A stretch of 64,000 bases of DNA from Tilletia caries (taxonomy: Eukaryota; Basidiomycota; Exobasidiomycetes; Tilletiales; Tilletiaceae): contig JALUTQ010000027.1 of NCBI GenBank assembly GCA_032718865.1, positions 1,169,311 through 1,233,310 of the forward strand. Reading direction: 5' to 3'. A program made the translations under genes and the position numbers. Shown here in pieces: positions 2,510 through 61,145 of this stretch; position 1 is the first letter of the stretch; each line of letters opens with the position of its first letter. The notes under the pieces are model-generated. The model was given only the letters and a program-made list of their open reading frames with translations, did not search any database and was not told where the DNA came from.

Positions 2510-3268
2510 CAGGCACCGGACATTGAGTGGATTGAGGGTCATTGAGTGGGTCGACCACCATAATTCACACACAACACAACGTTAGCAGCTACAAAGACAT
2601 GGATCCTATTCCTTAGCCCACAGTGACCTTCCCATGCAAATTTGAGGTGTGGTTTACTTGCTAACGGCAGTGCTATGGTGCTGGAAGCAGGTGAAGGTCG
2701 GTCTGAGATTTCAGGATTCATTGGAAAAACATTGTACATCGACTTTGAACACCAACCACACGACATCCAGCTGAATAAATATTGCTCAAGCAAAGAAAAG
2801 AACTGATCAGTGCCTCAAGATGAAGACGTAGCAGGTGGATTCAGCGTGTTTGGTTAGCTGGTTGAGGAGCTAGATGCGCTGGAGTACAGAGGTGTTTAGA
2901 GTTTTGGCGGGGCTCTTTTTGGGAGAGGCAGTGAGCAGTTTTGCGCTCACAAACCTCACCCAGAAGGGACTCGCGATCGATCGCCCGATCCTACTGACCC
3001 ACTCAATGACCAAAAACTTGAGCATTGCACATTCCTTCCAAACCACCGTTCTCGACGACCACACAATCAAACAGTCTCAAGGAAGCGGGAGGTTGTAGCT
3101 TACAATTATACCTAGAATACAGTCTCAAGGAAGCGGGAGGTTGTAGCTCACGATTATACCTAGAATCCCTTCCTTTGTGTGTCATCTGTTTGTGTATTAG
3201 TTTGCGAGGTTGGTGGTGGTGAAGGTCAAAATTTTCAGATTTCTAACCCACTCAATGTCCGGTGCCTG
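2510..3268 (-). mobile_element. Pogo-type MITE, deletion derivative of the Pogo-B family
   Basis: The ends are inverted copies of CAGGCACCGGACATTGAGTG, flanked by TA on both sides (2508-2509 and 3269-3270), as expected for Tc1/mariner/pogo insertion. Read on the minus strand, its first part resembles the left end of Pogo-B (about 32080-32960, including the palindromic GGGCGATCGATCGC). Its last part resembles the Pogo-B right end (about 41100-41364). It therefore looks like an internally deleted, non-coding relative of that element. The small reading frames inside have no recognised product. Confidence 0.85.
3071..3166. repeat. 48-bp unit repeated twice in tandem
   Basis: Units 3071-3118 and 3119-3166 each begin ACAGTCTCAAGGAAGCGGG and differ at only a few positions. 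The duplication lies inside the MITE and is not visible in the corresponding part of Pogo-B, so it arose in this derivative or its lineage. Confidence 0.85.
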
Positions 3269-3275
3269 TATTTAA

Positions 3276-3660
3276 CAAAGCTCGGACAGTTACTTACAGT
3301 TGTCCATTTTGGGTATACAGTACAGTACAGTTACAGTTATAACTTACCGCCAGCGCCTACAGTACAGTTACAGTTACAATTAAGTTACTTTAAGTTACTA
3401 CACTTACTGTATTTTTTTCCTCGCGCACGGACCTCCAACCTCAGTTTAAGTCACTGTTTAAGTCACTGTAGCAGTAACTAGCAGTTACTGTAGACAAAGT
3501 CTCAAAGTAACTGTAACTTAAAAACTTATTATGTCACATAACTGTAACTTAAAAAATATTTTAAGTCACAGTTTTGCCCTTCAAAATTGTCACCTAACAG
3601 TCCTTGAAAGTGACTGCAACTGTGACTTTTACAGTTCCCGCAGTTTTCAGTTCTCACGGA
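3276..3660. repeat. Left terminal and subterminal repeat array of the 9.3-kb element
   Basis: The terminus is followed by many direct and inverted copies of ACAGTTACAG, TAAGTTACT and AAGTCACTG. The block is matched in inverse orientation at 29340-29550 and 54400-54611. Such arrays normally bind the transposase. It ends shortly before the first coding exon. Confidence 0.85.
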
Positions 3661-3787
3661 ACCTCGCCGCTCAGCCCTTTCACCTCTTCACACCGTCCAC
3701 CTACCCAACGCCTCACCATCGCCATCGCCCATCCACAACGCATCCAGCAGCATTCCGCATTCCTCACCTCAGTCGCTCCACGCTATC

Positions 3788-6700
3788 ATGACCGAGGCTG
3801 CCAAGCCTCCGGCCAAGAAGACTCCATTCAACCTCACCCAGTATGACAAGGATCGTCGCCTCCTCGAAATCATGGGCGCCACCTGCTTCGAAGGACTTTC
3901 CAACGACGACCTCGAGACACAGCTTCACGAGCTCAATCTGGCTCCACTTCGCCTCTCCCAAGAACACAACTTCCAGCTCGGCATGAAGGAAGAGTACAGG
4001 GGAATTTTCTCGACGATAGGAGACACGCAGACCAGCTACCTGTCGGTTGGTCCCGAAGACGACATCTGGCTCGAACGGGTGAGAAAATGACCTGCTTATC
4101 ATGCCTTCTGGTATCTGCATTGACGTCCATATCTCTCTTTGCATCCGCAGCCAGTCGCTTTCACTCAGGAAGGTGAAGCAATGTGGAAAACCTTCCAGCA
4201 AGAAGCGACGGAGGACACTTTGAGGCTGCTTCTGGACGGAACTCATCCCTCCCAGTCGCAACGAGCCCCTCTAGCGGCTCAGGCCGTCTCGAAGAACCCG
4301 GCTGCTGGTTCGTCTTCCGTAGCCGCTGGGTCCACGTCCGCTGCTGCACCGCGTGACTCGGTGAGTGTCCAATCCAATACCGTCGTCCATACGCCTTCCT
4401 TATTGACTGATCCATGTTTTCTCGTCTGCCATAGTCGAAGCGGATTCGTAAACCCAATTCTCGCTTTTCGGATTACGAGCAAGACGAACCTTCTCGACTT
4501 CGCAAGCGTTCCAGCGGCACTGCCGCCGCCGCCGGCGTCAACCTTGCCACAGCGAACTACTCTGACGACAGTCTCGCCGATGAAAACTACAACGACAAGG
4601 ACGTTGAGAACTAGGACGAGTTCAGCGAAGAAGAAAACATCGGCGCTTCGGATCTCAGTCCAGCTAAGTCCAAAGGCAAGAAGAAAGCATCTGCCCCCGC
4701 CGTCAAGAAGGCGAAGCCCCCTCGCAAAATGAACCACCAAGAGCGGAAGGAATACAACAACGCCCTTCGCGGACGCGATGGTTCCGATGACTCCTCCTCG
4801 GACTTCTCGGACGACGACGACGACGACGACGCGCCGAACCGTCGCAAACGGCGTCGCAAGGGGTCCCGTCCGTCGTCAGGAAGCGCCACCCACCTGCAAC
4901 AGGCGAAGAAGCCACGCAAGTCGGAGCCTGAAGTGATCGTTATCATCGATGAGGAAGAAGATGAAGACGCTCAGAACGTCACTCGCTTCTTTCGGCACGT
5001 CAAGACGACCACCCAAAATCGACATCGCAACAAGACGGGAGCGCAATATACCGTCATCGTCGAGAATTGGGAGTGCCGACTCTGCGGGAATCACTACACC
5101 GGACACCCGACCAATCGGTCCAACCTCTCTTTGCATCTCAACCCCAAGACCAGCAAGTCCCCCTGCAAGCGACTGTACAATCCTCTCGACAAGTCTCTTC
5201 TCGGAGTCTTCAAGCCCCCCGTGAAGAAGGTTGAGCAGGCCCAGCCCGCCGGCGCACCGTTCGGTGATAACATCAAGGACGGCACGTCGTCTTTCGCCGG
5301 TCTTGGCCAACGAAGTCTCGACTCGTGGGTTAACGGCCAACGGCACCGCGCCCATGAGGTTCAGGCCTCCGTTGTCAGGCAGAAGGCACTGCTCTGGGTC
5401 ATCATGGATGCCTTGGCGTTCACGGCCCCGTCCAGCCCATGGTTGAGGGCTCTCATCACGGCGGCCAGTCCTGTCGCCGTCCAAGGACTTATGTCCGCTC
5501 GAACCATCGTCACTGATTTGGAGCGATTTTGCGATTCGCTGCTCGACCAAGCACTCAACGCCATCAAAAGAAGTCGCACTCCCTTCGCCATCCTGCAGGA
5601 TGCGTGGAGCTCTCCTTCTCAACGCCATACTTTCGTGGCTTTCGTGGTCACCTACCTCGACTCCGAATGGAAATACTGCCAATTCGTTCTCGACTTCGCC
5701 GTCCTCAGAGGCCGCCACGGAGGAGCTACGTTTGCTGCTCATCTCGTGAAGGCCCTCAAGAGGCATGGGATCTACGATCTTTGGACCGGGATCCTCGTTG
5801 TGGACGCCGCTTCGTCCAACGGCCGGATGTCCTCAATCATCGAGCAAGAGCCGGCCGTGGACAAGGTCTTAGACGAAGAATTGGACGAGCCCGAGGAGTT
5901 TCAAGAGAACTCGAGCAGCGGTCAGACAGTTCATCGACAGGCGGACCACGTCATCTATTGCTTCAACCATGCTTTGAATCGAGCGATGCAAGACCTCTAC
6001 CGAGTGCTGGGGGTTTCTTGCGCCGATGGAACGGGGGTACTGGGAGCTGCTCCAGACGGCACGGAGGAGGATGTCGCCATACCTACCAAGGCTACCAAGT
6101 TGCCGCCTTCAGGCGGGAAGGATGCCGAAGCTGCAAGTAGCGGCGAGGAAGACGATGCCGAAGCTGCTGGAGAGTCGGAGAACGAGGAGGGAGAAGGGTT
6201 CCTCGCCGCTAAAGATGCTGATACTCAAGATGCCGGAACTGGAGAAGTGGTGGGACTCGACGACGACGATGACATCTTTGTCGACCCTAAGGAGGCCCGA
6301 GCTGCTCTGTCGTTGATGCGCGACCTTCGTCAGCTGCCCCCCATAGCCGAAGAGAAGGACGAGGACGGAGAAGAAGCGACGCAGCCCGGACCCGAAGAAG
6401 AAGTACCTTCCGCCGACGAACCCCTCCAGATTTCGGGACCCCTCGGAAAAATCGCCCGCTTCGCCAAGGTCGTCCATAGCTCATCCGAGTCCAAGCGCGA
6501 GTTCGTCAAGTTAATGGGGGACGGGAAGAGCCGTACAGCAAGGAAGCAAGCAAAGAAGCAAGCCAAGGCGATGCCACCCAAGCTCAACCACACACGCTGG
6601 AACAGCCGTTTTGAGCAGCTACACTTCGCCATCAAGGTCCCGGAAGGCTACAACTTCGTCTGCAAGAATTCAAAGCGTCAAGGCCCAAACGGGTACACGG

Positions 6701-7596
6701 ACCTGACCCTGAGCGATCGCGAGTTCTCTCTGCTGGAGAACATCCACGACATCGGAGAGTATGTGCAGGAGCGCACCCTCGAGTTCGAAAAGAACGATGG
6801 ACACGCTTGCAAGATGCTGGCCCGCTTCGCCGTATTGGTGCACGTCCTCTCTGTCGAGATCAACAGCGCGAAGGAGAAGCTGAACGGACCGACCCGAAAA
6901 GATCCTTTCGCGAAGGACAGGGACAACGGGGCTGCTGATCTTTACATTCAAGCTATGGAGAAGATGCGCACCAAGATTCGACGGTACCAGACTCTCGCCG
7001 CCAGCACCAAGTCGATCATCATCGCCACTGCTCTCCACCCCAAGTACCGGCTGAGCATACTCGAGCGCGACTATCCCGGGCTGGCTACCCGCGCTCGTTC
7101 CTTGATCGAGGACGAAGTAGCCCAATACGTTTCGCGCACGAAAGAGCCTGCTCATGCGATCCTTGCTAGTCCCAGCCCAAAGAAGGACAAATGGAAGCGG
7201 GCACCAGTGGCGGGCATGGAGGCCCACGTCATTCCGAAGAACTCAGATGTTGAGGCCTATTTCGGAGGCCGGTATCCCTGGCAAGGGACTGCTCTTGGAC
7301 CAGATGCAGACGAAGACGTCATTCTCGGGTGGTGGCGTGACAACGAAAAAAACCTACCAATCCTGTCGAAGGTTGCTCGCAAGTACCTCTGCGCGCCGGC
7401 CTCAACTTCCGCTGTAGAGCGAGTCTTCTCGCGTGCCGGCAGATACGTGTCAAACAGGCGGCCTCTTGGACCCACCACGCTCCGTCATTTGGTGATCTCC
7501 AACTCTCTCATCCTCGGCGGCTGCGACCCCAATGCCGCATTCGACGCTACAGTGGGCAAGACCGCTGAACGCTCCAACAAGATAAGTGCAGCTTAG
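3788..7596 (+). CDS. hAT-family transposase, three exons, one in-frame stop
   Basis: DNA transposase of the hAT superfamily, expected to cut and paste the surrounding element. Exons by inspection are 3788-4078, 4151-4360 and 4435-7596. Both introns (72 and 74 nt, GTGAG...CAG/TAG) are phase 0. Exon 3 holds an acidic and basic low-complexity region, then a zinc-finger-like WECRLCG...H segment (BED-like) around 5070-5150. A catalytic-type DAWSS motif lies near 5600, VVDAASSNGRM near 5800, a long acidic insert at 6040-6420, and NHTRWNSRFEQ near 6590. The C-terminal hAT dimerisation segment, with ASTSAVERVFSRAGRYVSNR, is at 7395-7460. The combined length would be about 1220 codons, long for the family. 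One TAG at 4612-4614 interrupts exon 3. Either the gene is dead, or translation starts at the ATG at 4729 and gives 955 residues. Confidence 0.9.
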
Positions 7597-7689
7597 CCAT
7601 CGCGATGCGACCAGCCGTGGTACGATGTGTAGTTGAACAAGAAATAGATACGAATTCGAGTTGATCTGATGCTTCGACGAGATCCAGCC

Positions 7690-7835
7690 AGTGAAGTCAA
7701 CTGCTAGTTACTGCAAGTCAACTGAAAGCTACTATAAGTTGACTTAAAGTAACTTATAGTTGACTGAAAGTAACTTAAAGTATCACTGTAAGTAGCTGTT
7801 GAAGTCACTTACAGCTACTTTCAGTCGCTTTCAGC
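7690..7835. repeat. Internal AGTAACT/AGTTGACT repeat array
   Basis: This gene-free stretch between the transposase and kinase 1 has repeated units such as AAAGTAACTTA, AGTTGACTTAAAG and CAGCTACTTTCAG. It resembles the subterminal arrays at both ends of the element. It may be a transposase-binding array, or a leftover end of an older copy that was joined in. Confidence 0.7.
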
Positions 7836-7951
7836 AGAGATATGGTAGCCCTGTATCATGTATGTCCATTCCGGAGCTCGTGAGTCGTGAGAGTAGAGTC
7901 AAACAAGGCTCACGCCGATTGCAATTGCCACAGGACCACTCCTTCGGAGGG

Positions 7952-9224
7952 TTAAGGAGAGGTAGAGGGCATTCGGTCCGGCATGATAACCTCGGTGAAG
8001 AGGGAGTGCTGGAAAAGAGTTGCGACATGAGGTCGCTGCATGGGCTCGAGCCTGAGCATGGCGATTATCAAGCTGACGGCGTGAACGGGAAGGTCCATCA
8101 AGCGCTCGCGGCCATCTGCACGGAATGGGCTGTATGTCGTAGGGAGAAGTGTAGTGTTCTTGGTGAAGCTGTTGCGGCTGAAAATGCGACCGCCGTGATG
8201 GCCAGTGAAGCGAAGTATTTCCTTCATAGAGTCGAGTCCGTCCTCGGCAGAGAACAGGGAGCGTCCCCGATAAATCTCGGCCACTACACATCCAGTTGAC
8301 CATACGTCCGACTGGAAGGTTGCTTGGGCCATACCGATCAAGCATTCTGGTGCGCTATACCCCACTGTGCCGACGGTGCCCGCTTCTGCTGTCGTTCCGA
8401 CCTCCGCGGCCTTGCCGAAGTCGCTGATGTGAAGCGTTCCTGCGGCGTTGAGCAGAATGTTGCCCGGCTTGATGTCAAGATGAGCCAGTCCGAGGCGATG
8501 CATAGCGCCCACAGCGAGTAGCAGCTGCATTGAGAGGTTGCGTGCCGTTTCGTGTTGAAGTCCACCCAACTCTTGACCGATGAGATCGTCGAGAGAACCC
8601 CAGTAGATCGGCATTATGATGTCGATCTTGCCTCGTCGATGGCAAATGTCGATGAGCTCCACGAAGCCCTTACACTTCTGCAAGCGGAGCAGGGTCCGGA
8701 CCTCGAAGAGCAGCTGTTTTGAAGGTCCATCGTCATCGTATTCTTGTCTCTTGCGGGCGCGGTCAGGGCCGCCGAATGTATCGACCACACGAACGACCCG
8801 CGCGTACGCGCCTTCTCCGAGCACCTCCGCCTTGTTGCTTCGACGATATCGCCCACATGCGCGCCATTCGGGCGGTGCGACCCAGCTGTCTGTGTATGTC
8901 AGGGGGCCAGTTGTAAGCGATCGCAATAAGAAGCTGTCAACTTCACGATTCGCGAGCAAACGGAGACTCACTGCGCGGTAAACCAATCGGAACATCGTCG
9001 TCCGCGTCTTCTGGTGATTCCGAAACAACATCAGCTGCGGTATCTGCGACGTCCGGGCCATCGGCAGCACGCGCGCGCTTTGGAGCAGGTTGAGCAGGTT
9101 GGCCTGAGCGAGGTCGCCGGGGCTGCTGCTGGACGCGAGAGCTCTTGCTGTCTGGCGAGAGGGCCAAGCGCGTAGTATCCGAGGGATTAGGTACCAGAAC
9201 AGACGCGCGCAAAGGTTTAGCCAT
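7952..9224 (-). CDS. Protein kinase (CMGC/CDK-like), two exons, inside hAT element
   Basis: Predicted serine/threonine kinase of 396 residues. Exon 1 is 9224-8972, the intron 8971-8890 (82 nt, GTGAGT...ACACAG), exon 2 8889-7952; the ATG at 9224 (MAKPLRASV) gives the consistent spliced frame. Exon 1 is disordered, with a basic PKRARA patch that could be a nuclear signal. The kinase domain shows LGEGAYARVV (glycine loop), an ARK in the beta-3 position, GPSKQLLFE resembling the PSTAIRE helix of CDKs, HLDIKPGN (catalytic loop), SDFGKAAE (DFG), YSAPE (APE) and SDVWSTGCVVAEI. The usual HRD arginine is replaced (HLD), so it is a non-RD kinase. All catalytic residues seem present. Substrate unknown. 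It converges on the transposase gene. Confidence 0.88.
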
Positions 9225-9334
9225 GACTCTTGGTTGTTGATGTTCTGAGTGTGTAGTGTGTCGGTATCCTGTGTGGTTGGAGGAAGGGTGTTGAGGTTGT
9301 GATGGTCGTGGGTGTCTGTCTGGTGGAGGCACTT

Positions 9335-9405
9335 AAAGCCATTGAAAACCACTGAAAGTATTTATTTAAGCTACTGTGAAAGTAACTGTCAGCTACTTTC
9401 AGCCA
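9335..9405. repeat. Internal AAAGTAACT repeat array between the two kinase genes
   Basis: Short copies of ACTGAAAGTA, GAAAGTAACTGTCAG and CAGCTACTTTCAG lie upstream of kinase 1 and just past the 3' end of kinase 2. They match the texture of the subterminal arrays of the 9.3-kb element. They could also overlap the kinase 1 promoter. Confidence 0.65.
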
Positions 9406-9423
9406 TACATCGCGTCGACGAGA

Positions 9424-12135
9424 TCATGTCCTGAACGCGGCGGAGCGAAGAAGCTCCTTCGCCCTTGGTCTACTGACGGGATCGGCAACAAGGCAACGAT
9501 CCCTGAGTTCCAGGATGGGTTGAACGTTCTTCATGCTGACTGGAAGAGAATGGGGAAGGGCACGGGGATAGAACGGGAATGTCTTGTAACCGTGAAGCAA
9601 GTTTTCTTCAGAGTCTCCATGCTCTTCAGGCCCTGGAAACACACCGGGTAGTTTGTTCGCGCCTGGGAACACCTCGGAGATGTGATCGCCGACACGACCC
9701 AGCTCGTTACTTGTGCCGCAGTGACGCATGATAGCGTCGAACGTTGCGGGTGGATTATTGCGCAGATGACGCCAGGGGATCGATCCCATCAGCTCTTGTG
9801 TTACGACACCGAAAGACCAAATGTCGACCGTCACCGACAAGGAAGGGGACCTCAAGAACACCTCGGGTGGCCGATACTCGCACGTTACGACGGTACGCTG
9901 AGGATCCGGCTCGTTGGGCGGACGAGAAAGGCCGAAATCCGCAAGGCGAATACGCTCGTTCTTATCGACAAGTATGTTCTCGGGCTTGAGATCAAAGTGT
10001 GCGAACTTGCGCTGTTACGAGACAAGAGACGACGGGACGAATCAGTAGTGTAACATGAGAAGAAGGACATGCTTAAGAAGTGGTCCAGGGGAGGGAGGGA
10101 GGGGGGGTTCTCACATGCTCATGAAGATAATGCAATCCTTCCAGGATTTGACGAAGAAATGACGTGAGCGTCTGGAGACTGAAGTTGCGACCGAAACCCA
10201 TGTTGCTGGTGATGAGTGAGCGCAAGCTGCTGTCGCACAGAGGAAGAACGATGCCAATATCTGTCCCATCGAAGAGGATGTCGGTGAGATATACGATGTT
10301 TGCGTGAACTGCTGAACGGAGGGCGCTTATTTCACGCAGCATGGTGTTAGGGGGGGCGTCCTCGCGAATCGCATTTCGAGATCTTGACCGCAACCGGACG
10401 CTTGTGGAGAGTATCGATGCATTTGAAGACGGATCCTTGGGTGTCGACGCCAACACAGTCGCCCTTCCTGTAACGGTTGAAGTCGATACGCCACAACGGC
10501 GGTGGGGTGTATTGCAGATGTTTTGCAGTCCGAGGAACCGCTGGCTGCAAGGTATTCGCCGATGATGAGGATAGCTGGACGACAACGGCATCTGCCAGAG
10601 GCGCATGTGTTGGAACTTGAGGCTGCGAAGACGGCAATGAGGCGTATGGCGCGTTGGAAGAGACGTGTGCTGGTGGACCGAAGATTTCGCCCGGAAGGGG
10701 TGAATAACACGGCGTAACCTGTGGCTTCGCAGACGGTACCAAAGCAGACGGTACCAAAGCAGACGGTACCAAAGCAGACGGTACTGAAGTCGATGGCGCG
10801 TCCTCGTTCTCAACGACAACCTCAGTCGGGGGAGCCGACGCAACAGTCGGAAGTACCAACGGAGATTGAGGAGGTCGATCCGAGGATACTTGATGTTCGT
10901 CGGTAGAATCGACGCCCTGAGCGGATGGCGAGACCATACCTTTAGCTGAAATCGGAAGTGGAAGAGCTTTGAGAGGATCTGCTTTGTTTTCGAACGACGG
11001 ACCGTGTGGAGGCGCATCATGTGCACTGCCTTCTTCTCGTAGAACTGGGCCTGATAGAGTAGGAGGTCGGCGCAGTCCATTTGTCGTGGCTTGCTCCGAG
11101 GCCGCAGGGATTGCGCCCTCAACGGCTTCTGTGCACGAAACCAGGGCTGCAAGGGATGACGATGTGACGCTGTTTTCCCCGACGGCTTGAAGGAGGTTCG
11201 ATCCTTTGAGGAGAAGGCGAATCGTAGGACGATGGAGTCCCAGGAACAACATAGCAGGGGATCGGTCCGGGAAGTGAACGCGCAGGATGTACGCGATTTG
11301 GGTGGGATGAGGGCTGCGGGAGCTGCTGCTGAGAGTGCGAACTTGTCTCCTGTGGATGGGATGGCTGCTGGGCATCTTGCGTAGGCGAATGCTGTACCTG
11401 TGCGGTTGTGAACCGCGGATCCTGCTGCTGTATCCGATCGTCGGGCGGCAGATGCTGAGAGTTCGAGCCTGCAAGAGAAGCCGATGATGGTTGCTGCGGC
11501 GGAAGTCCTGTCACGACCTGCTGCTGTAGGACCGCTGCGGAAGTGGAAGTTGCACGGTCGATACGCTGGCGCTTCCGTGCGGTAGGTGATGGAGAGTGCT
11601 CCGTTCGCTGGGAGTCGAAGATGGCGGCGTCGGCTAAAGTGTTCAAAGCGAGCTCGGGGAAAGCTGGCGGGACACGAAGGGGATGGAAGACGCGTCCAAA
11701 GAGCTGGCCTTGGTGTAATGATTGCCGATTCTTCACCGCTCCGTAACCGCTGTCGACTTCGAGCAGCTCAAGAACAAGCTTGGGGATAACAAGACGGCTG
11801 AGAGTCAGCGCCAGATTGTCGGCAACCACTTTTCGCAGCTCATGAAACGCGGCGTTGAGAACGACCTGCTCGCCATAGGGTCCGTATGGGCCAGCGCCGC
11901 GCGTGTCGACAGGAAGAGCGTCGGGATCCATCGATCCTACGGAGAGCCGGATTCGGCGAAGGTGGTTGTGTCCCCGGGCTGCCTTCCCAAACAGTTTTGC
12001 TGCCACTGTTCCGAAATCGTACTCTGGTGGTGGCCACCCACGACGCAGGCCTTCTCGTCGCAGCAGGGCCACGTCGGTGGGATCTAGCTCGGTGAAGACT
12101 TGTTGTGAAAGTATGTCAAAGCTGCTGGTCGACAT
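9424..12135 (-). pseudogene. Second protein kinase, long disordered N-terminus, frameshifted
   Basis: The gene probably starts at the ATG at 12135 (MSTSSFDILSQQ). About 300 residues follow, turning into a Q/P/S-rich region with three VPSAL repeats (10740-10790). The kinase domain then starts near 10470 with YRKGDCVGVDTQGSVFKC and PVAVKISK (beta-3 lysine). The frame breaks in a run of seven G on plus (10350-10356) and continues one frame over with MLREISALRS. An intron at 10114-10012 (103 nt) is followed by the last exon, 10011-9424, with AHFDLKPENIL, ADFGLSR, CEYRPPE and VDIWSFGVV. HRD is replaced by HFD, as in kinase 1 (HLD). Another frame change lies near 11140-11200 and may be an unrecognised intron. 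A one-base homopolymer error in the assembly could explain the C7 break. Confidence 0.8.
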
Positions 12136-12229
12136 GGCGAAGGAAAAACATTGAGCTGTGAATGATCTGGTCGTCTGTACATAGTCCTGTCGAGTGTTTA
12201 CATTCCCAACGACGCCGCGTATTCCGATT

Positions 12230-12585
12230 TCCGGGTAAATGTTTTCGCCAAGGAAATGAGATTTGACTTAAGTAGGTGTGAAGTAACTGTAAGTAACTGT
12301 ACGTGGCTATCAGTGGCTGTAAGTGTTTTCTCAAACTGAAAGTGGCTGCCAGTAGTTTTTTCAACTTAAACAGTGATTTATAGTCATAGTAAGTTTGAAC
12401 AGTTTGGGGCCCGAATAAATTCCAACTTAATCCACTGTTAAGTTGACTGTACCCGGGCCCTACAGTTACAGTCAACTTAATTTTTCTTCCGGCTCCGCCG
12501 CCTACAGTACAGTTACAGTTATGACTTATTAAGTCAACTTACCTACAGTTACAGTGGGCACAGTTATACAGTCGCCGGGCCTTTG
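12230..12585. repeat. Right terminal and subterminal repeat array of the 9.3-kb element
   Basis: On the inverse strand this block is nearly collinear with 29010-29300 and 53724-54070, including GGGCCC-centred segments and the shared CAGCCAC...CACTTACAG motifs. It ends in inverse CAAAGGCCCGGCGACTG at 12585. Confidence 0.85.
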
Positions 12586-12760
12586 TATACTTGAAGGAAA
12601 CATTACCACTTTTTCCATACTGTCGCAGTAGTCAGACCTTCCGGACCAAAAACATACTGTATGCTGTGGTATGTTTTGAAAAGATTTCTGGTCCTCCAAG
12701 TATACTACGAAACACTGTCCCTCCGACGACGGCTGTCTTGCTGTTACAGCATCAGTCGCG
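12586..12760. repeat. TACTG-rich repeat block (right part)
   Basis: It contains CATACTGTATGCTGTGGTATG and AGTATACTAC motifs like those in 2026-2507. It lies immediately beyond the right end of the 9.3-kb element and probably belongs to the same older element as the left block. Confidence 0.45.
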
Positions 12761-23105: not shown

Positions 23106-25166
23106 TCATGCGGCAAATGAGGAGCCAAACTGGGTCAACCAGTTGTCAAGGCACATCATTCTGGCGACTGTGGAGGATGTAAGAGAGTTTCGGCGGTCAC
23201 TAATGAGCAGCTTGCCGCGCGAGAACATGGACTCAGAGGGGGCAGTTGAGGCAGGAATAGCCAGCAGGTCGCGAGCCATCTTGGCCAAGGCAGGGTAGCG
23301 CTGCGCCTTCTCCTTCCAGAAGTCGGTAGGAAGGTGCACCTTAGGGACCAGAGCATCGGTGAGGTACGACTCCACCTGCTGGTCAAGACCAAGGCCAGCA
23401 GTGAGCAGCAGTGCTCATTCCCTGATGCTCTTGGAGAAGGTCGAGGAAGGTGGATCGGATCGCCAACGGGGGGAAGACGCGATCCATCACCTGTAGTCGC
23501 TGGGGAGTAGTGGGCTGACAGGTAGGTGTGGAACTCCTGGCGAAGAGCTACGGGATCACGGGACTGACCCACAAGGCTCATCTTCACCGCAGGGTGCAGA
23601 ATGGTGGCAAACTGGGTGGCGGTACCGTCAATGAGGTGGACGCAGTAGTGCTGCAGATGAGCTCCGAGGTGAAGGGCCAGGCTGTTTCCCCAGGCTGTGA
23701 GCGAAGCGTTCGTCTCGCGGAGGGCAGCTCGATGAGCCAAGTAGTCCACGGTCTGCGCGACCGTGCCGAGGGTGAAGAACTTCAGGCCTTGAAGGAACTC
23801 GGTGGCCTGGGCGAAGGGAGCGAGGATGGCAACGATGTCCCTCATGTAGCTCCAGGTGATGGAGGAGAAGGCGACATCCTGGAGGTCGGAATCGTCGCGG
23901 AACAGGCGTGCGATTGCCGTCTCCATGGATAGCAGGCCTTGGAGCATCGTATAGGTGGAGTTCCACCTGACATCCATATCCCGCTTGGGTCGGGAGTAGG
24001 TGTCCCCGGTGCGTGCGCACATCTCCTTGAGCTTCTGGCTGAGCGGGATAGAGCGACGCACCGTGTTGGAGAACTTGCGAAGGGGCTCGAGGATGTCCGA
24101 GGTCTTCGCGTCGGCAAGGCCATGCTTGATGGCCAACTGGAGAAGGTGGGCGGAGCAGCGCATCTTGTGGAAGGGGCGGGGGGCCACGGCAGCTTGCAGG
24201 TGAGTGGAAATGTTGTAGGCGCTTGCAGTTGCTGTGTTGTCCGTGACGCATGCGCTGATCTTGCGGTCGATGCCCCAGTCTCGGATGCAGTCCCACAGAA
24301 GCTGAAAGGCGTTCTGGGCAGAGTGAGGGGCGGGGAACAGAACGAAAGCCAGAAGGCAAGATCGGTGCTGCCAGTTGGGCGTGATCCAATGGCCGGTCAG
24401 GCAGAGGTAAGGGTCGTCGTTGGGAGCCGTCCATCCGTCTGTGGTTAGCGCGATCGCGCTGTCCAAGCCTTCGAAATGAGTCTTGAGCTGTTTGAGAAGG
24501 AGAAGAGATGAAGTCAGCGTAGAGCTCGGCAGTCTCTGACCAGGGAAAGGGGACCAACCTTCGCCTTGGACTCATCGTACTTGGCCATCAAGTGACGGCG
24601 AACGGTGTCGGCGGAAGGAGGCTCGTACTCCTGCCGGAGGGTCTTGACAAAGCGGAGGAAGGCAGGATGCTCCGTGGCCAAGAAAGCTTGCTGGTCGTTG
24701 GCAATCCAGTCGTATAGCGCTTCGCTCGCCAGACGGGTCTCATTTTTGCCGAAAGCTCGAGCAAACACCAGCAGCTGCTGACCACGCTCCTGGCCCAGTC
24801 CGAAGCAAAAGGTAGCACGAGCCCAAACGTGACGATTACCTGCGAGAATAAGGAGTATGGGTTCAGTTTGTGTCTCGGTTGACCGCTCTCGAAACATGTG
24901 CTCTACTGACCACTGCTGCTGTCGACCTTAGAAGCAAGTAGCTTCCCACACTTCTTGCACGGGAGTTTGTCGCCTACCCGCTTCTCCTGGTCAATGTACT
25001 CCCACACATCGGATTGATTGGTTCGTCGCTTGCGCTTGGTAGCCGCGGAAGAAGAAGAAGAACCACCTGTGACGGCTTCATTTCCATCGTTGGTAGCTGC
25101 AGATGGAGGAGCTGGAGCCAAGTCCCCTCGTCGTTGATCTCAATGGCGGTTGAAGCTGACGCCATC
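23106..25166 (-). pseudogene. hAT transposase with zf-BED domain, frameshifted
   Basis: Exons by inspection: an N-terminal exon ending near 24914 with a BED-type finger (SDVWEYI...CKKCGKLLA); a middle exon from about 24840 to 24559 (NRHVWARATFCFGLG...DESKAK); and a long exon from 24487 (LKTHFEGLDSAIALTTDGW). The intron 24558-24488 has a GTTGGT donor and an AACAG acceptor. The core shows ALTTDGWTAPNDDPY (catalytic Asp region), CVTDNTATASAY, RCSAHLLQLAIKH and DVRWNSTYTML. The C-terminal dimerisation part is in another frame (23375-23106: IPASTAPSESMFSRGKLLIS), so there is a frameshift near 23400. A further frame problem exists between MASASTAIEIND and the BED exon. Non-functional as it stands. 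Confidence 0.88.
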
Positions 25167-29009: not shown

Positions 29010-29550
29010 CAAGACCCGGCGACTGTATAACTGTGCCCACTATGACTGTAGGTAAGTTGACTTAATCAGTCATAACTGTAACTGTACTGTAGGCGGCGGA
29101 GCCGGAAGAAAAATCAAGTTGACTATAACTGTAGGGCCCAGGTACAGTCAACTGTACAGTTGATTAAGTTGGAATTTATTCGGGCCCCAAACTGTTCAAA
29201 CTTACTATGACTATAAATCACTGTTTAAGTTGAAAAAACTACTGGCAGCCACTTTCAGTTTGAGAAAACACTTACAGCCACTGACAGCCACGTACAGTTA
29301 CTTACAGTTGAAAGGCAAAACTGTGACTTAAAATACTTTTAAGTTACAGTTACTTTGAGAGTTTTTTTACAGTGACTTAAACTGGGATTGGAGGTCCGTG
29401 CGCGACGAAAAAAATACAGTAACTGTAGTAACTTAAAGTCACTTAAGTGTAACTGTAACTGTACTGTAGGCGCTGGCGGTAAGTTATAACTGTAACTGTA
29501 CTGTACTGTATACCCAAAATGGACAACTGTAAGTAACTGTCCGAGCCTTG
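29010..29550 (-). mobile_element. Short derivative of the 9.3-kb hAT-type element (541 bp)
   Basis: Starts CAAGACCCGGCGACTG, ends GTCCGAGCCTTG; exact 8-bp target duplication CCTGTACG at 29002-29009 and 29551-29558. Its left 290 bp match the inverse of the right end of the large element (12290-12585). Its right 240 bp match the inverse of the left end (3276-3560). Everything between, including transposase and kinases, is deleted. Confidence 0.95.
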
Positions 29551-29900: not shown

Positions 29901-31940
29901 CTCGGGCCCAATGGTGGAGGAACGGTCTTCCGCATTTTTTGCTGTCACGAAAAAGCCCTCTCTGCAGAGAGGGCCCGCAAGCTCAACGATAATTACTAGC
30001 TCAACGATAATTTCCAAACATTACTACTGGCGCTCTCCATACACATCCTCCCAAATGAGATCCTCAACGTCCATCTCTGGCTCCGAATCTGATATCTGAG
30101 GGGCTGAGTTCTTCCGCTGCTTCTTGATCTTCCTCCGGAGCTCCGCATGAAGTTTGCCCCAACCTTCAGCCTTGCGCTTCAAGACCGCCTTTTTCTGCTT
30201 TGCCCAATCCCGTTTGGCCTCCTCTCGCTGCTCCTTGGCTAACTTTTCCTCCGCTATTTCCCGTGCCTCCTCAACCGAAAGTACCCCACCAGACTGTGTT
30301 ACTTTGCGTTGCCGCTCCTTGCGTCAATCCCGCTCCTGCTGCGCCGCCGTTTGGACCTCCAGCGCCGTTACTGCAAGGTTGCCTGCTTGAACCTGCTGCA
30401 GCGCGCCACGAACAAACGCCTGCATCTGGCGACACAGCGTTGGAGAGAGTTGCTCCGTTCGACCTTCCAGGAACGCACCGGCACGGCCAAGCGACCTGAT
30501 CGTGCGTGGCGTGGAGGGAACGGCTGTAGCTGTGGTGGGGGATTGCGGAGGGGAAGAAGAAAGGAGTACGGGTGCGTCCGGCTCGATGAACCGCTGCAGA
30601 ACTTCCTACGGGTTGAATGGCTCGATGCCCGTACGACGGAAGCCGGCCTTAATTGTGTTTGGGTTTGAGCGCGGCGAGTCGGATGCTGTTGAGCGCGGCC
30701 AGAAACTCTGTTTTTCCGAAGCTGGTGCATCCGGTGCGCGTTGCCTTGTCGATGGCGTCTCTGTGCCAGTGCTTGTATGGCTGGAACACGGCAACGTCCA
30801 GGGGCTGCAGGAAGTGGGAGGAATGGGGGGGAAGGCTGAAGGGAATGATGTCGTTGTCGGTACAAACTTGCAAGAACTGCTTGGTGCAGTGGGATCCGTG
30901 GCCGTCGAATATCAAGAGGCGTTTGTGCCCCCTGCTGAGATTCTTGGTCTTGACGTTGAAGTGCTTGATCCAACGGAGCGCGAGAATGTCGTCCGAGTAT
31001 CCGGACTCCGAGACGGCGATGAGGGTGTCCTTGTCGAGATCGTTCTTGACCCAGGCCTCCGAGTGTTGACTGGCCGCAAGGATGACCATCGGTGGGATGT
31101 GGGATCCGGACGCACTAACGGCCTCCACGCAGGTGACGGACTCGCGGCTGGTGTTGATAGCAATGCGAGCCTCCCGAGACGGACACAGAGTAACGATCCA
31201 TTGCTGTCCACCGATCTCAATCCTAAACCCCACCTCGTCCATGTTCCAGACGTCGCTGGGGGTGATGCCGTTGTCGTCGATGACCTTCTTGAGCTTGCGA
31301 AAGAAGGCAGAGCAGGTCGAGCGGTCGTGAATCATGCGCGTAAGCTCTTGCGCCTTCTGCTTGACAACCGAAAGATCCGGATGTCGGTAGAGAAAGTTTC
31401 GAACCCAGTTCTCCCCAACGACGGGTAAAGGGCCGGCATCCGTGTGTGCCTCGCGGAGAAGCTGGTTGGCGGACGCCTCGATGAGGGACGGGCGAGCTGA
31501 CAGCTCCAGCTGGTCCAAAACGTCGATCCAGGCCAGGATGGCCGACTCCTGTGCGTCCGTCAGCTTGCGGTTGGTGGGGGCGCGCGTGGTCTTGCTCTCC
31601 TTGCCCTTGTAGCGGCGCGTCAGGCGCTGCATATCGACGCCATACTTGCGAGCCAGAGCCGAAATGTTGACCTTGCCGACCGTACTGCGCGCCTCTTCAA
31701 GTGCGCACTGGAGCTTCTCCTCGTCTTCGTGGTAGTTAGAAGGCATGTTCAGAGAAACGGGGTTGATTGCAAGGAGTTGATGGAGGTACAGAACATAGAA
31801 GTTGAGCAGGAGACGCGACGTGTTTGGAAATTATCGTTGAGCTAATAATTATCGTTGAGCTTGCGGGCCCTCTCGGCAGAGAGGGCTTTTTCGTGACAGC
31901 AAAAAATGGGGAACACCGTTCCTCCACCATTGGGCCCGGG
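29901..31940 (-). mobile_element. Pogo-C, pogo/Fot1-like element with long TIRs
   Basis: Inverted repeats of about 120 bp begin CTCGGGCCCAATGGTGGAGG at the left and the inverse of CCCGGGCCCAATGGTGGAGG at the right, with TA immediately outside (29899-29900 and 31941-31942). Each repeat contains the perfect palindrome GCCCTCTCTGCAGAGAGGGC (left copy; one change at the right) and paired AGCTCAACGATAATT units. It is 2040 bp with one transposase gene on the minus strand. Confidence 0.93.
30606..31746 (-). pseudogene. Pogo-C transposase, C-terminus broken
   Basis: Starts at the ATG at 31746 (MPSNYHEDEEKL). An N-terminal psq/CENP-B-type helix-turn-helix (VNISALARKYGV) is followed by the second CENP-B HTH (LTDAQESAILAWIDVLDQL...VVGENWVRNFLYRHPDL). 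The DDE core has WNMDEVGF (first Asp), LLIFDGHGSH (second Asp) and SSHFLQPLDVAVFQPYK (third Asp). The open frame ends at 30649 (AALKPKHN). The conserved end GFRRTGIEPFNP is in another frame to 30606, followed by a TAG and then further readable sequence. So one frameshift and one nonsense codon near the end make it probably inactive. Confidence 0.9.
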
Positions 31941-53723: not shown

Positions 53724-54611
53724 CAAGGCTCGGCGACTGTATAACTGTGACCACTGTGACTGTAGGTAAGTTGATTTGATAAGTCATAACTGTAACTGTA
53801 CTGTAGGCGGCTGAGCCGTAAAAAAAATAAGTTGACTGTTACTGTAGGGCCCGGGTACAGTCAACTGTACAGTTGACTAAGTTGGAATTTTTTCGGGCCC
53901 CAAACTGCTCGAACTTACTATGACTATACAGCACTGTTTAAGTTAAAAAATGGCAGCCACTTTCAGTTTGAAAAACACTTACAGCCACTGACAGCCACGT
54001 ACAGTTACTTACAGTTATTCACAGCTACTTTATACTTAGGTCAAATCTCATTTCTTGTCGAAAACTTTTACTCGGATTGGGGTAAGGAATGCAGAATGCT
54101 GCTGGATGCGTTGTGGATGGGCGATGGCGATAGTGGGACGTTGGGTATGTGGACGGTGAGGGCGGAAATCAGGGATGCTGTTTGTGAAGAGAAATGGGGT
54201 CGTTGGGGTGGTGTGTGCAAAGATAAATGAGATGAAGAGGTAAAAGGGCTGAGCGGCGAGGGTCCGTGAAAACTGAGAACTGCGGGAACTGTGAAAGTTA
54301 CAGTTGCAGTCACTTTCAAGGGCTGTATGGTGCCAATTTTGAAAGGCAAAACTGTGACTTAAAAATTAAAATACTTTTTAAGTTACATTTACTTTGAGAA
54401 TTTTTCTACAGTAGCTGTTAGTAACTGTTACAGTGACTTATACTGGGATTGGAGGTCCGTGCGCGACGAAAAAAATTCAGTAACTGTAGTAACTTAAATT
54501 CACTTAATTGTGACTGTAAATGTACTGTAGGCGCTGGCGGTAAGTTATAACTGTAACCATACTGTACTGTATACTCAAAATGGACAACTGTAAGTAACTG
54601 TCCGAGCCTTG
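53724..54611 (-). mobile_element. Second derivative of the 9.3-kb hAT-type element (888 bp)
   Basis: Starts CAAGGCTCGGCGACTG, ends GTCCGAGCCTTG; exact 8-bp duplication CCTCCTTC at 53716-53723 and 54612-54619. Besides both subterminal arrays it retains, inverted, the leader of the hAT transposase gene (matching about 3640-3775, including the CGCATCCAGCAGCATTC segment). It then jumps to sequence equal to about 12228 of the large element. The deletion thus removes everything from just before the transposase ATG to the far side of both kinases. Confidence 0.95.
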
Positions 54612-57604: not shown

Positions 57605-60600
57605 TTACTCGATATTGAGGACGGGGTTGATGTCCAGGTGGGCGGGGAGGCAGAGACGGACGCGATGGGGCGAAAGTACTTCTTCGACGACGAAAGGCCC
57701 TAGCTTCCTCGCGTCTAGCTTGTCGCCGATGGTGCCTGCTACAGGACGGTCTCGGAGCCGGATCCATGCGCTCATGCCGGCAGAGATGAGTGGAGGTCGC
57801 GCGCGACGGCCGTCGAACCGACGCTTTTGATCAAGCCGAGCAATGGCAATCTGACGTCGAGCCTCCGTCAACCGTTCATGTCCAGCCGCCAATCGTTCCT
57901 CAAACGAGCTGACCCCGAGATGCTCCTCGCCGTCAAACACGGCGTGCACCACAGACGGGTGGCTGAGGAAGACGAGATCGAACGGCCGGTGCCCCGTGAC
58001 GGATGATGGGCTACTGTTCATAGCGAGCTCGACGGAAGGAAGAAGGCGACGATCCCAATGGGCCTTCGAGTCGAGGGAGAGGACCTGTAAGACCTGTTGG
58101 ACAGTCTGCACGGCCCGCTCCACGCTATTAGCTTGTTGGTGGTAGGGACTGGACGGGGTGGGGACAGCGCCAAGCGACGCGGCGAGGGCGGACAAGACAG
58201 AACCAGAGACACGCGCCTCCGAGTCGGACACCAGGCGCTTGGGTCGCCAACCGAACCGGAGGATGCGATCGCTGACGATGGCAGCAACGCCTTCCGCCGA
58301 AATCTCCTTATGACAGGGTTCCAACAGGATCATCCGAGAGAATAAATCCTGCATGACCAGAGCAGCATCATTGCCGGACCGGGAGTGAGGGAACCCGTAG
58401 ATTAAGTCGAAGGAGACCGCCTCGAACGGCAGCGAGACATCTTTGGACACGTCGAGGACACCGGACTTGGGCGCCGTCTTCGTCCGTTGGCATGCAACGC
58501 AGTGCTTGACCCATGCCCGCACGGACGCGGCGAGTTGGGGGCGCCATAAGTAATCCCGGACCGCCATGAGGGTCTTGAGGAACCCGAAGTGGCCGCCGTC
58601 ATCGTGTACGGCCTTCAGTACGACCGGAATGGCGGCCGAAGGAAGGGCGACACGATCGTCCGCACGCCGTACCAAGATTCCATCCATCAGCACCCACTCG
58701 TCTGCAGCTCCGGGTGCGTCGCGTGCCTGTCGCAACAGAGGCGCAAAGAAGCGGTCCTCTTCGAGCCAGGAACTCCATCGCTGGCGAGCAAGGGGCGAAG
58801 GCAGTTGGGGAACGGTGAGGGTGTGGAGCTGAGCAGGAGCGTCGGTGGCCGTGACGGACGCCGGGGAAGAGGGGACCTGGTGTAGGATCGCGGCGAGAGC
58901 ATGTTTAGACGCATCTGTATACAGAATGTAGGGACGGGATGGGTCGGGGTGCGCGAGCACCGGAGGGTTCGCGATGGCATGTCGGAGACTCTCGAAACTG
59001 TCTTGTTGTTCCGCTCCCCACTCGATCGGAACCCGCCCGGCCGCGACGGCTTTGCCTTCCGTATTTATCAGCCGAGTGTGTCCGTCGGCCGACTCGTAGC
59101 GCCAGCCCTTCAGAAGGCGAGTAAGAGGCGCGGCCCGAGCGGCGAAGCTGGGGACAAAGGCCCGATAGTAACCAAAGAGCCCCAAAGTATGGTAAAGCTC
59201 CTGTAAAGTCGTGGGCCGTGCCAGAGTAGCAACGGCCTGGGCCCGATCCTCCCAGATGGCCACACCCGCACCCGAAACCTTCCGTCCCAGTAGTGTCAGC
59301 GAGGGAACGCCAAAGGTACACTTGGCGGGACTGAACTTCAGGCCCACGTCCGTCGCCGACTGGAGAAGGGTGTCAAGAGCCTGGAGATGCTCTTCCATGG
59401 TATCCGTGGCTACGACCGCGTCGTCGATGTAGACCACGGCCTGGTTCCATCGTAGCGGTCCAAGAACTTTGTCCATTAGCCGCTGGAAGACGGCGGGAGC
59501 ATTCCGGAGACCGAAAGGAACAGTCTTGTACTGAAAGAGGCCCTTGTGGCAGACAAAGGCTGTCTTCCAGCGATCGCTCTCCTGGACTCCGAGTTGGTGA
59601 TAGCCCCGAATCGCGTCAAGGGAGCTGAACACTTTCTTCCCGCAGAGCGTTTGGAAAATGGAGTCGATCGTGGGCAGTGGGTATCGGTCCGGAATGGTGT
59701 CGGCGTTGAGTTTGCGATAGTCGACGCAGAAGCGCCACTTGCCTTGTTGACGAACCATTACCACTGGAAACGAGACCGGACTGGCGGAAGGCTCAATGAC
59801 ATCCCAGTCCAAGAGCTGTTTGATGGCGGCGTCCATTGCCGTCTTTTTCTGGACTGGCGCGCCGGGGGGCTTCGGACTGCAGAACGGCGCCGGGCTGCAA
59901 ATGAATGCCCATGTCGTTGCCGATGATGCGACCAGGTCGGCCGTCCAAAGCGAACGCGACCTTGTGGCGGCGAAGGAGCGCGACGAGACCGGCATCGACG
60001 TCGCCTTGACCGTCGACACCGACGCGAAACGCCTCGTCCACGAGTTTTGTGGCCACGTGCTGAGCCAGAGATGGGAGTGCAGCCTCCTCGTCAGCGAAGG
60101 CATCGACGGGAAGCGCGGGGTCCACTTCCGCGACCGAGAGAGGAGAATCTAGCACGCCATCGTGCTGCGGCGTCAAGGGGGACAGCGTGAATGCCGCGGC
60201 AGAGGACGACACCGTATCGCCCACCCGCGCAGCAACAGCGTCAGCAATGACCGTCCCTCGAGGAAGGATGAAGGGAGCGACGCCGTGATTTCCAACCAGG
60301 ATATGTCGGATGGCCGCGTGAGTGATGACGCCTACGGGACCGGCGAGCCGTACCGTCTCATCCGGACTGACGCACATCCGAGGGCCCACAGTGTAGTCCA
60401 CGTCGGGAGCTAGGCACGAGGCGGCAACGGGGACCCAAGCCTGTGTACCGGCCGGCAAGTCCACGTCGTGTGCCACGCACAGCTCGGCCTCGGCGGTGAA
60501 CGGACCCACAATGCGCTCGTGCACGGGAAAGGTATAAGAACCGATCCGTCCGCGACCACGAACCGGGGAGATACCAACGCCATGGGCGTCGATAAAATCC

Positions 60601-61145
60601 AAGCCCAAGCACAGGCCGGGCGCGAATGACGGAAGGACATGAAAGTCCTGCTCGAGCTCGAGATGGGCGTGTTGACCGTGAGGGTCTTGTGCGTGGATGA
60701 AGAGTGGCAGTGTGGTCCACCCCAACGTCGTAGCGGCCCCAATGCCGTGGACCTTCATGGGTTCGCCGGTGGGTTGACCTCCCATCTTGCGCAAGAGGTC
60801 CGCGTCAATGCAGGACAGAGAGGCGCCAGTGTCCAGTAACGCGGACATAGCTCGACCGTCAGTGTCGTTGACTCGGACGTGCATGGTGAGAGGGACGTGG
60901 GACTGATAGCCCTTGCCGGTGCCCGTGGCCGCGCTGCGATCCAACGTTATGACCCGACCAAACGCTCGCTTTGGTTGGGAGAGAGGAGGCAACGAAGCGT
61001 TGGGTCGGAGATGACGAGCCGTTGTGAAGACGCTCTTCTGACTGAAGAAGATCTGAGGTTCAGGCTCGGACGAAGCAGTTGGTGGATCATCATGTGGAGC
61101 TGGGCTCGTGGAATTGGACATGGAGGGCGCAAGGCTTTGCTCCAT
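57605..61145 (-). pseudogene. Gypsy pol: protease, RT, partial RNase H, integrase
   Basis: From the ATG at 61145: retropepsin (ALLDTGASLSCID near 60830), a long linker, then a frameshift near 59870 into RT. RT motifs are FPVVMVRQQGKWRFCVDYRK, SSLDAIRGYHQLGV, FGLRNAPAVFQRLMD and VVYIDDAVV (catalytic YIDD near 59430). RNase H begins (RPYILYTDASKHALAAILHQ, near 58915) but is cut short. Integrase follows with HDDGGH and CVACQ (HHCC zinc site, about 58600-58490), the catalytic Asp residues at FDLIYGF and SDSEARVSG, the Glu at NSVERAVQTVQ, and the C-terminal domain to PVLNIE (stop about 57602). The long frame 60103-57605 is otherwise open, suggesting fairly recent decay. Confidence 0.92.

What the first reader, a model, noticed from the sequence alone, without database searches (positions are those of the whole stretch)
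3276..12585. A 9.3-kb hAT-type transposon that carries two protein kinase genes
Seen: inverted ends and subterminal arrays at 3276 and 12585, of the same kind as two short elements with perfect 8-bp duplications, enclose a hAT transposase and two kinase genes on the opposite strand. Both kinases have replaced the HRD arginine (HLD, HFD). Known: hAT elements usually carry only a transposase. Inference: the kinases are cargo or accessory functions that move with the element, perhaps acting on the transposase (its long acidic, Ser-rich insert is a possible target) or on host cell-cycle control, given the CDK-like helix of kinase 1. This is the best candidate in the window for an undescribed system.
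Basis: partly seen in the sequence, partly recalled or inferred. Interest (0 to 1): 0.88.

Follow-up and report, generated by a model that had tools for sequence, protein, structure and literature searches.

The report
Jumping gene carrying two protein kinases
A fungal cut-and-paste jumping gene carries two protein-kinase genes besides its own mobility enzyme, and distant relatives in the same genome carry such kinases too, some together with an altered histone, which suggests that these elements bring their own tools to manage the host cell.

Summary
Window 3276-12584 is a hAT transposon with its transposase on + and two kinase genes (K2, K1) on -. This copy is worn: its flanking 8-mers match at 4 of 8, and transposase and K1 frames are broken. 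Two other full copies in the same genome (C4, C40) hold all three genes between the same ends with perfect 8-bp duplications, so the kinases lie inside the mobile unit. 25 of 32 two-ended copies, mostly short derivatives, have perfect duplications. Of 74 hAT C-terminal loci, 33 have a kinase convergent within 5 kb (chance ~0.5). K2 is under purifying selection (dN/dS 0.03-0.22). The kinases read have H[L/F]D in place of HRD. A sister family with similar ends also carries a histone H3 with K9F and K27S, K4 and K36 kept. Best reading: the kinases are genes of the element, not passengers; I favour counter-silencing (about 0.35). Nothing functional was tested. Kinase-bearing (alpha-kinase, IS3EU) and H3-bearing (hAT) fungal transposons are in print; CDK-like kinases in hATs were not found in 8 searches of an open-access library. 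Genus: Tilletia, by protein matches.

The parts
3276..12584 (+). kinase-bearing hAT transposon, family 1, window copy (9,309 bp)
   Evidence: ends shared with 31 other two-ended copies; full copies at C4 and C40 with perfect 8-bp duplications
3276..3600 (+). left terminal inverted repeat (CAAAGCTCGG here, CAAGGCTCGG in most other copies) and subterminal repeat array
12280..12584 (-). right terminal inverted repeat and subterminal repeat array
3268..3275 (.). left flank 8-mer GTATTTAA; right flank 12585-12592 GTATACTT; 4 of 8 match, duplication not preserved
3788..7596 (+). hAT transposase gene, exons about 3788-4078, 4151-4360, 4435-7596 (exon ends inferred by comparison with the intact T. indica relative P0001, 1240 aa); one in-frame stop in this copy
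7952..9224 (-). K2: CDK-like kinase gene, exons about 9224-8972 and 8889-7952, 396 aa, basic stretch in the N-terminus, HLDIKPGN, DFG; open
   Evidence: (P0006, T. laevis, 99%)
9424..12135 (-). K1: CDK-like kinase gene, exons about 12135-10115 and 10011-9424; N-domain (~155 aa), long Gln/Pro/Ser-rich linker, kinase domain with HFDLKPEN and DFG; frames broken in this copy
   Evidence: N-domain predicted helical in relative P0096 (poor model)
29010..29550 (-). 541-bp derivative of the same family, perfect duplication CGTACAGG
53724..54611 (-). 888-bp derivative of the same family, perfect duplication GAAGGAGG

Best explanation
It is a hAT cut-and-paste transposon whose own gene set includes two CDK-like, non-RD protein kinases. 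SHOWN: the kinases lie between the terminal repeats in three full copies, two of them with perfect target duplications; related transposases, down to about 27-30% identity, have relatives of K1 and/or K2 placed convergently beside them; the K2 kinase domain is under purifying selection between copies. INFERRED: the kinases are expressed from the strand opposite the transposase, enter the nucleus (K2 has a basic N-terminal stretch) and act in trans to help the element, which is why selection keeps them. MOST LIKELY ROLE (about 0.35 on its own): they weaken host silencing or the chromatin or cell-cycle block on transposition, for example by phosphorylating chromatin proteins; sister families that carry a histone H3 with K9F and K27S, or with K9Y, would serve the same end by another route. 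The identity of the element and its kinases I hold at about 0.9; the figure below is for identity plus 'accessory function for the element, not cargo', without the specific target.
For: Full copies with duplications CGCTAGTC (C4) and ATTCCCCG (C40). 25 of 32 two-ended copies perfect, one more at 7 of 8. 33 of 74 hAT C-terminal loci have a convergent kinase within 5 kb downstream; 1 same-strand, 1 upstream; about 0.5 expected. 14 of 15 diverged K1 N-domain loci and 18 of 20 K2-type loci lie beside a hAT. Transposase tree and K1 tree agree for families B, A, A'' and 1 (the B kinase row is partial and long). K2 dN/dS 0.12, 0.03, 0.22 between the three family 1 copies; 11 of 14 changes synonymous against 25% expected, P=4e-5; 0.09 between L080 and L088 (dS 1.9, near saturation). 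HxD Asp and DFG in every kinase stretch that covers them; catalytic Lys kept except in the decayed copy L082. Sister family A: similar TIR, duplication CCCAGTTC, 9,271 bp, transposase + H3 (K9F, K18L, K27S, K79R; K4, K14, K23, K36 kept) + K1-type kinase. Host genome: 2 Pre-SET loci, Piwi at 2 loci, no C5 DNA methyltransferase match.
Against: No expression, activity or mobility data. K1 is broken in the window and C4 copies and appears split between frames in C40; no copy in this genome was shown to have all three genes intact. Between window and C4 copies dN/dS is 0.45-0.57 for the transposase and 0.71 for K1 outside its kinase domain (0.91 in the linker), and 0.24 in the K1 kinase domain on only 7 changes, so selection on K1 is weakly supported on this time scale. 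No enrichment of full CDK sites in the transposases. Nothing links the kinases to chromatin except company: the H3 gene is in sister families, not in the window element. 41 of 74 hAT loci show no convergent kinase in the (truncated) list; at least 3 of these (C24, C33, C39) do have a K1-type match, but kinases are clearly not needed for hATs as such. The K1 model is poor (pLDDT 38.5).
Confidence: 0.65

Rival explanations
1. The kinases regulate the element's own transposase or the timing of transposition: they phosphorylate the transposase or host cell-cycle and repair factors so that excision happens when repair from a sister chromatid is available.
For: Both kinases are nearest to CDKs in sequence, K2 also in fold; convergent and co-inherited with the transposase.
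Against: Full CDK sites not enriched in 14 transposase sequences (2 against 0.8 expected in the window one, P=0.2; bare [ST]P high in 1 of 14). No substrate evidence. Loss of the HRD arginine suggests regulation unlike that of host CDKs (general knowledge).
Confidence: 0.25
2. The kinases are passive cargo: host kinase genes captured and amplified, as published for 'transduplication' of histone H3, of no use to the element.
For: Capture of host genes by fungal hATs is published (PMC6710886, PMC3538342). Broken K1 frames; relaxed K1 linker.
Against: K2 under purifying selection; K1- and K2-type genes beside transposases of 27-40% identity; no close host kinase: beyond the hAT-linked group, full-length K2 matches fall to about 30%.
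Confidence: 0.12
3. The kinases benefit the host (adaptive cargo, as argued for Starship elements; recalled, no call).
For: K2 is open and conserved; many loci.
Against: Copies decay repeatedly and the window copy sits among other transposon-like ORFs; no phenotype known.
Confidence: 0.07
4. Chimera: the two ends belong to different elements and the kinases are neighbouring host genes.
For: Window copy lacks a perfect duplication (4 of 8).
Against: C4 and C40 copies with perfect duplications hold the same three genes.
Confidence: 0.01

Closest known systems
hAT superfamily DNA transposons (Ac, Tam3, fungal hATs)
   Same: hATC dimerisation domain, short terminal inverted repeats, subterminal repeats, 8-bp duplications, short derivatives made of the two ends
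   Different: two conventional protein-kinase genes inside; 9.3 kb; long acidic insert in the transposase
IS3EU transposons of rust fungi with alpha-kinase and TET/JBP genes (PMC12730594; passages read)
   Same: fungal DNA transposon with transposase and kinase genes in opposite orientations; possible epigenetic helper
   Different: other superfamily (6-bp duplications); alpha-kinase, not a PF00069 CDK-like kinase; a TET/JBP gene, which I did not search for here
histone-H3-bearing hATs of Pyrenophora and of Pseudocercospora and kin (PMC3538342, PMC6710886; passages and named sections read)
   Same: hAT with an extra histone H3 gene; sister family A here also carries H3, at 9.3 kb against ~9.5 kb in Pseudocercospora
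   Different: the word 'kinase' occurs 0 times in the main text of either paper; they read H3 as captured or drifting; here H3 is full-length with K9F/K27S beside a kinase, while family 1 has kinases and no H3
cyclin-dependent kinases (CDK1/2/5, PfPK5, Pho85)
   Same: best sequence matches of K1 and K2 and best Foldseek matches of K2; PSTAIRE-like region in K1
   Different: HRD replaced by H[L/F]D; extra N-domain and linker in K1; cyclin dependence unknown

Membership tests
hAT superfamily | hATC dimerisation domain (PF05699) | tested here: met
   E=1.9e-13, 50.4 bits over cut-off 21.4
hAT superfamily | 8-bp target duplication | tested here: met
   perfect in C4 and C40 full copies and in 25 of 32 two-ended copies; not in the window copy, 4 of 8
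hAT superfamily | short terminal inverted repeats | tested here: met
   CAAGGCTCGG / CCGGGCCTTG
hAT superfamily | N-terminal BED zinc finger | tested here: inconclusive
   16.8 bits, below cut-off 20.6; 18.6 in P0001
hAT superfamily | RNase-H catalytic acidic triad | not tested
   PF14372 only below its cut-off; residues not mapped
CDK / CMGC kinases | conventional kinase domain with catalytic Lys, HxD Asp, DFG | tested here: met
   PF00069; residues read; Lys lost in decayed copy L082
CDK / CMGC kinases | HRD motif | tested here: not met
   HLD (K2), HFD (K1)
CDK / CMGC kinases | branching inside the CDK group | tested here: inconclusive
   with CDKs against Chk2/SNF1 (99/96), but K1, K2 and CDKs unresolved; also unresolved in a second, quick tree
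CDK / CMGC kinases | cyclin binding | not testable with these tools
   no experiment
IS3EU with alpha-kinase | alpha-kinase and 6-bp duplication | tested here: not met
   PF00069 kinases, 8-bp duplications
H3-bearing hATs | histone H3 gene between the ends | tested here: not met
   none of the 65 PF00125 matches lies in the window element; met by sister family A

The most novel reading that the evidence does not exclude
A whole clade of hAT transposons carries a modular kit of nuclear regulators against host control: non-RD CDK-like kinases, and in some families a histone H3 that keeps the activating-mark lysines (K4; in family A also K36) but has lost silencing-mark lysines (K9 to F or Y; in family A K27 to S). 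The host has H3K9-methyltransferase-type genes and Argonaute but no C5 DNA methyltransferase match, so the transposons would attack the layer of silencing that this host appears to use, as TET-bearing transposons of rusts may attack DNA methylation.
Probability: 0.3. Interest if true: 0.93.

Novelty: new variant of a known kind. Interest (0 to 1): 0.82.

Why it matters
DNA transposons of eukaryotes are mostly thought to bring only a transposase and to depend on the host for the rest. A group of hATs that keeps its own CDK-like kinases would show that cut-and-paste elements can carry regulators, as large viruses do. It also gives a new reading of published histone-bearing hATs, treated so far as accidental gene capture: in a sister family here the histone lacks the residues that silencing marks use, which makes a counter-silencing role directly testable.

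Tried and rejected
Transposase as kinase substrate: [ST]P.[KR] not enriched in 14 of 14 sequences (lowest P 0.12); bare [ST]P high in 1 of 14 (L071, P=0.022); [ST]xx[DE] high in the three family 1 rows, as the acidic insert would give. RIP as the cause of decay: no CpA bias among window/C4 transitions, and no PF00145 match. 'HLD is unique to these kinases': rejected; of 196 non-Tilletia kinases listed by the two kinase searches 155 are HRD, 26 HLD and 2 HFD (lists capped and, for K2, drawn by words that include HLD), and the 15 outgroups were picked by a pattern that excluded L and F, so their HRD is by construction. Tree with HLD, HYD and HCD kinases added (quick): K2 does not join the main bacterial-type HLD group. 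First transposase tree dropped: two rows were in the wrong frame; redone. K1 N-domain: no Pfam or PDB sequence match; the 50 Foldseek rows shown for the poor K1 model are almost all kinases and none was reported for the N-domain. A neighbouring element 7 bases left of the hAT does not explain the lost duplication. A pairwise alignment timed out; a Pfam scan of other window stretches failed on stop codons and was not repeated.

Limits: the genome search scores only its best candidates (the C40 copy was missed and found by protein); the kinase list is truncated; 113 'kinase loci' are merged pieces; copies within a family are not independent. The count leaves out three duplicate loci (L038, L039, L059) and the C4 and C40 full copies, which were checked apart.
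Full report
WHAT IS THERE. The window is the end of contig C22 (1169311-1233310) of a 38.1-Mb, 40-contig genome. Protein matches place it in Tilletia, bunt fungi: K2 99% to T. laevis, the transposase 97% (47% covered) to T. controversa and 89% (whole query) to T. indica, K1 96% (63% covered) to T. caries; the species is not settled. The element spans 3276-12584. The transposase (three exons; the intact T. indica relative P0001 has 1240 aa) runs on +. K2 (396 aa, two exons) and K1 (about 855 aa, two exons) run on -, so K2 and the transposase are tail to tail. Exon ends are my reading of splice signals and relatives.

THE WINDOW COPY IS WORN. Its flanks match at 4 of 8 positions. Its transposase has an in-frame stop and K1 has two frame breaks; K2 is open. 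The C4 copy has its own breaks in the transposase and in K1; in C40 transposase and K1 also fall into pieces. Intact relatives of each gene exist in the databases (P0001, P0006, P0096).

THE KINASES ARE INSIDE THE MOBILE UNIT. A search of the own genome with the element gave 77 matches. At C4:1625658-1636110 (97% identical, with a nested insertion of about 1.05 kb and an extra piece of about 146 bp) the element with all three genes is bounded by CGCTAGTC on both sides. At C40, about 615.15-625.37 kb, a third full copy is bounded by ATTCCCCG. Of 32 two-ended copies in hand (the window's three included, the C4 and C40 ones not), 25 have perfect 8-bp duplications, one 7 of 8, six 2 to 4 of 8. 28 of the 32 are 464-888-bp derivatives made of the two ends; one of 2.66 kb at C5 keeps part of K1.

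A GROUP, NOT ONE ELEMENT. Six-frame searches gave diverged transposases, K2 relatives and K1 N-domain relatives. I then took all listed hAT C-terminal loci (74) and kinase loci (113 after merging; list truncated). 33 of 74 hAT loci have a kinase within 5 kb downstream in convergent orientation; 1 on the same strand (it lies between two hATs and is convergent to the other), 1 upstream at 2.5-8 kb; about 0.5 expected by chance. The 41 others include a high-scoring hAT group and family F, whose transposase is related (25-28%) but which has no kinase match nearby; three of the 41 (C24, C33, C39) do have a K1-type match; C4:981895 has a kinase in another arrangement. By DNA and protein comparison the pairs belong to several families: 1, A, A'', B, B', C (four subfamilies), and others known by coordinates only. 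Of 15 diverged K1 N-domain loci 14 lie beside a hAT (exception C19:1132437); of 20 loci that match K2 at 43% or more over 170 or more residues 18 do (exceptions C33:780318, C1:1311855).

TREES. Transposases: family F outside, then C, then B with B', then A with A'' next to family 1 (the C and F branches are long, and midpoint rooting was for drawing). Kinases: a K1 clade (91/84; 99/97 without the long, partial B row) with B outside A, A'' and family 1, in line with the transposases, and a K2 clade (100/100). Both fall with CDKs against Chk2 and SNF1, but whether K1 and K2 are sisters is unresolved. The nearest solved chains by sequence are PfPK5, CDKL2, CDK5 and CDK2 for K2, CDK5, CDK1 and CDK2 for K1; by fold PfPK5 and CDK2 for K2 (model pLDDT 66.8, pTM 0.71, TM about 0.55).

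CATALYTIC STATE. All 12 Tilletia kinases returned by the searches and the kinase stretches of this genome that cover the motif (family 1 K1 and K2; L063, L071, L080, L082, L086, L087, L088, L093) have H[L/F]D, and DFG; L080 and L082 have HLDITP; L089 is out of frame there. The catalytic Lys is kept except in L082, which also has stops. This looks like active non-RD kinases rather than dead ones (inference). HLD is not unique to them.

SELECTION. Between the three family 1 copies K2 shows 8 synonymous/3 nonsynonymous (C22-C4), 11/1 (C22-C40), 3/2 (C4-C40); taken as 11 of 14 synonymous against 25% expected, P=4e-5 (simple site count, no transition correction). Other near copies: L080-L082 0.38 and L086-L087 0.34, on 15 and 6 changes, both pairs with a copy that has stops. 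L080 against L088: dN 0.165, dS 1.93. The transposase gives 0.45-0.62 in its third exon (and 0 synonymous/3 nonsynonymous in exon 1), K1 0.24 in its kinase domain (4/3 changes), 0.37 in its N-domain (4/4) and 0.91 in its linker. So K2 is clearly kept; K1 is unclear on this time scale, though its kinase domain and N-domain are conserved across families.

THE HISTONE. Family A (C25:1175303-1184573, 9,271 bp, TIR CAAGGCTCGGCAA/TTGCCGAGCCTTG, duplication CCCAGTTC) has between its transposase and its K1-type kinase a histone H3 gene on the transposase strand. The tail is open in C30, C32 and C40 (one residue differs) and broken in C25; the whole gene is open in C40 and C32, while C30 is broken near the end of its core exon. 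The 136-aa protein of the C40 copy aligns with H3.3 almost end to end and has K9F, K18L, K27S, K79R; K4, K14, K23 and K36 are kept. The K9F tail pattern occurs at four loci, all family A. Family B' (L070) has a more diverged H3 gene, on the kinase strand, with K9Y and K4 kept, its frame broken. The genome has 65 PF00125 matches; most were not read.

HOST SIDE. Two Pre-SET loci, two Piwi loci, no C5 DNA methyltransferase match. This fits a host that silences by H3K9 methylation and small RNA, but the marks themselves were not measured.

WHAT IS IN PRINT. TET-bearing IS3EU elements of rusts have transposase and alpha-kinase genes in opposite orientations (PMC12730594, passages). [quoted passage not shown] A Tilletia comparative-genomics paper lists hAT among 15 superfamilies and does not contain 'kinase' (PMC9172201, passages). 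I found no report of CDK-like kinases in hATs in the searches (titles and abstract starts of the papers listed; two listed none); the library lacks most subscription papers, and Repbase could not be searched.

MECHANISM. Shown: location, linkage, orientation, selection on K2. Inferred: expression, nuclear action, help to the element. I rate counter-silencing first (about 0.35), because sister elements carry a histone stripped of silencing-mark residues and because fungal transposons in print pair a kinase with a TET/JBP dioxygenase; that a chromosomal kinase may protect chromatin from H3K9 methylation is proposed for fly JIL-1 (PMC6877644, start of abstract in the listing only). Transposase or cell-cycle regulation comes next (0.25); passive cargo (0.12) is disfavoured by K2's dN/dS.

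Noticed in passing
L076 3702-, L077 3376-, L079 (reverse strand), C25:1179744-1180286: Histone H3 gene inside sister hAT family A with K9F, K18L, K27S, K79R and K4, K14, K23, K36 kept, near a K1-type kinase; open throughout in C32 and C40. Possibly more surprising than the window element itself.
   Followed up: partly
L070 about 4361-4800 (C33:751089-), C27:532706-533035: A second, more diverged H3-like gene in hAT family B', with K9Y and K4 kept (read in L070), between transposase and kinase on the kinase strand; frame broken in L070.
   Followed up: partly
C19:343722, C30:498158, C5:1644247, C23:898191; C39:1051513, C27:891950, C39:797353 and others: Many further histone-fold loci, several in repeated spacing patterns; some may be H3 genes of other transposons. 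Letters could not be fetched.
   Followed up: no
C21:1099121, 1118937, 1138797: A K2-type kinase plus hAT unit repeated three times at about 20-kb spacing.
   Followed up: no
window 2510-3268: A 759-bp element with inverted ends (26-nt repeat, 96%) and TA flanks lies seven bases left of the hAT's left end.
   Followed up: partly
window 23136-24466 (-): Remnant of another hAT transposase (PF05699 match; ORF) with no kinase match within 6 kb.
   Followed up: no
window 30649-31746 (-): ORF of 365 aa that looks like a pogo-type transposase (by eye; no family search).
   Followed up: no
window 57605-61145 (-): Overlapping ORFs that look like a gypsy-type retrotransposon polyprotein (by eye; no family search).
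   Followed up: no
P0097, C-terminal 40 residues (T. controversa): K1-type kinase model ends in a Cys/His cluster that resembles a BED-type finger; no Pfam hit, may be a gene-model fusion.
   Followed up: partly
K1 residues about 1-150: Conserved N-domain, predicted helical in P0096, without Pfam or PDB sequence match; shared DxRGAGPYGP motif.
   Followed up: partly
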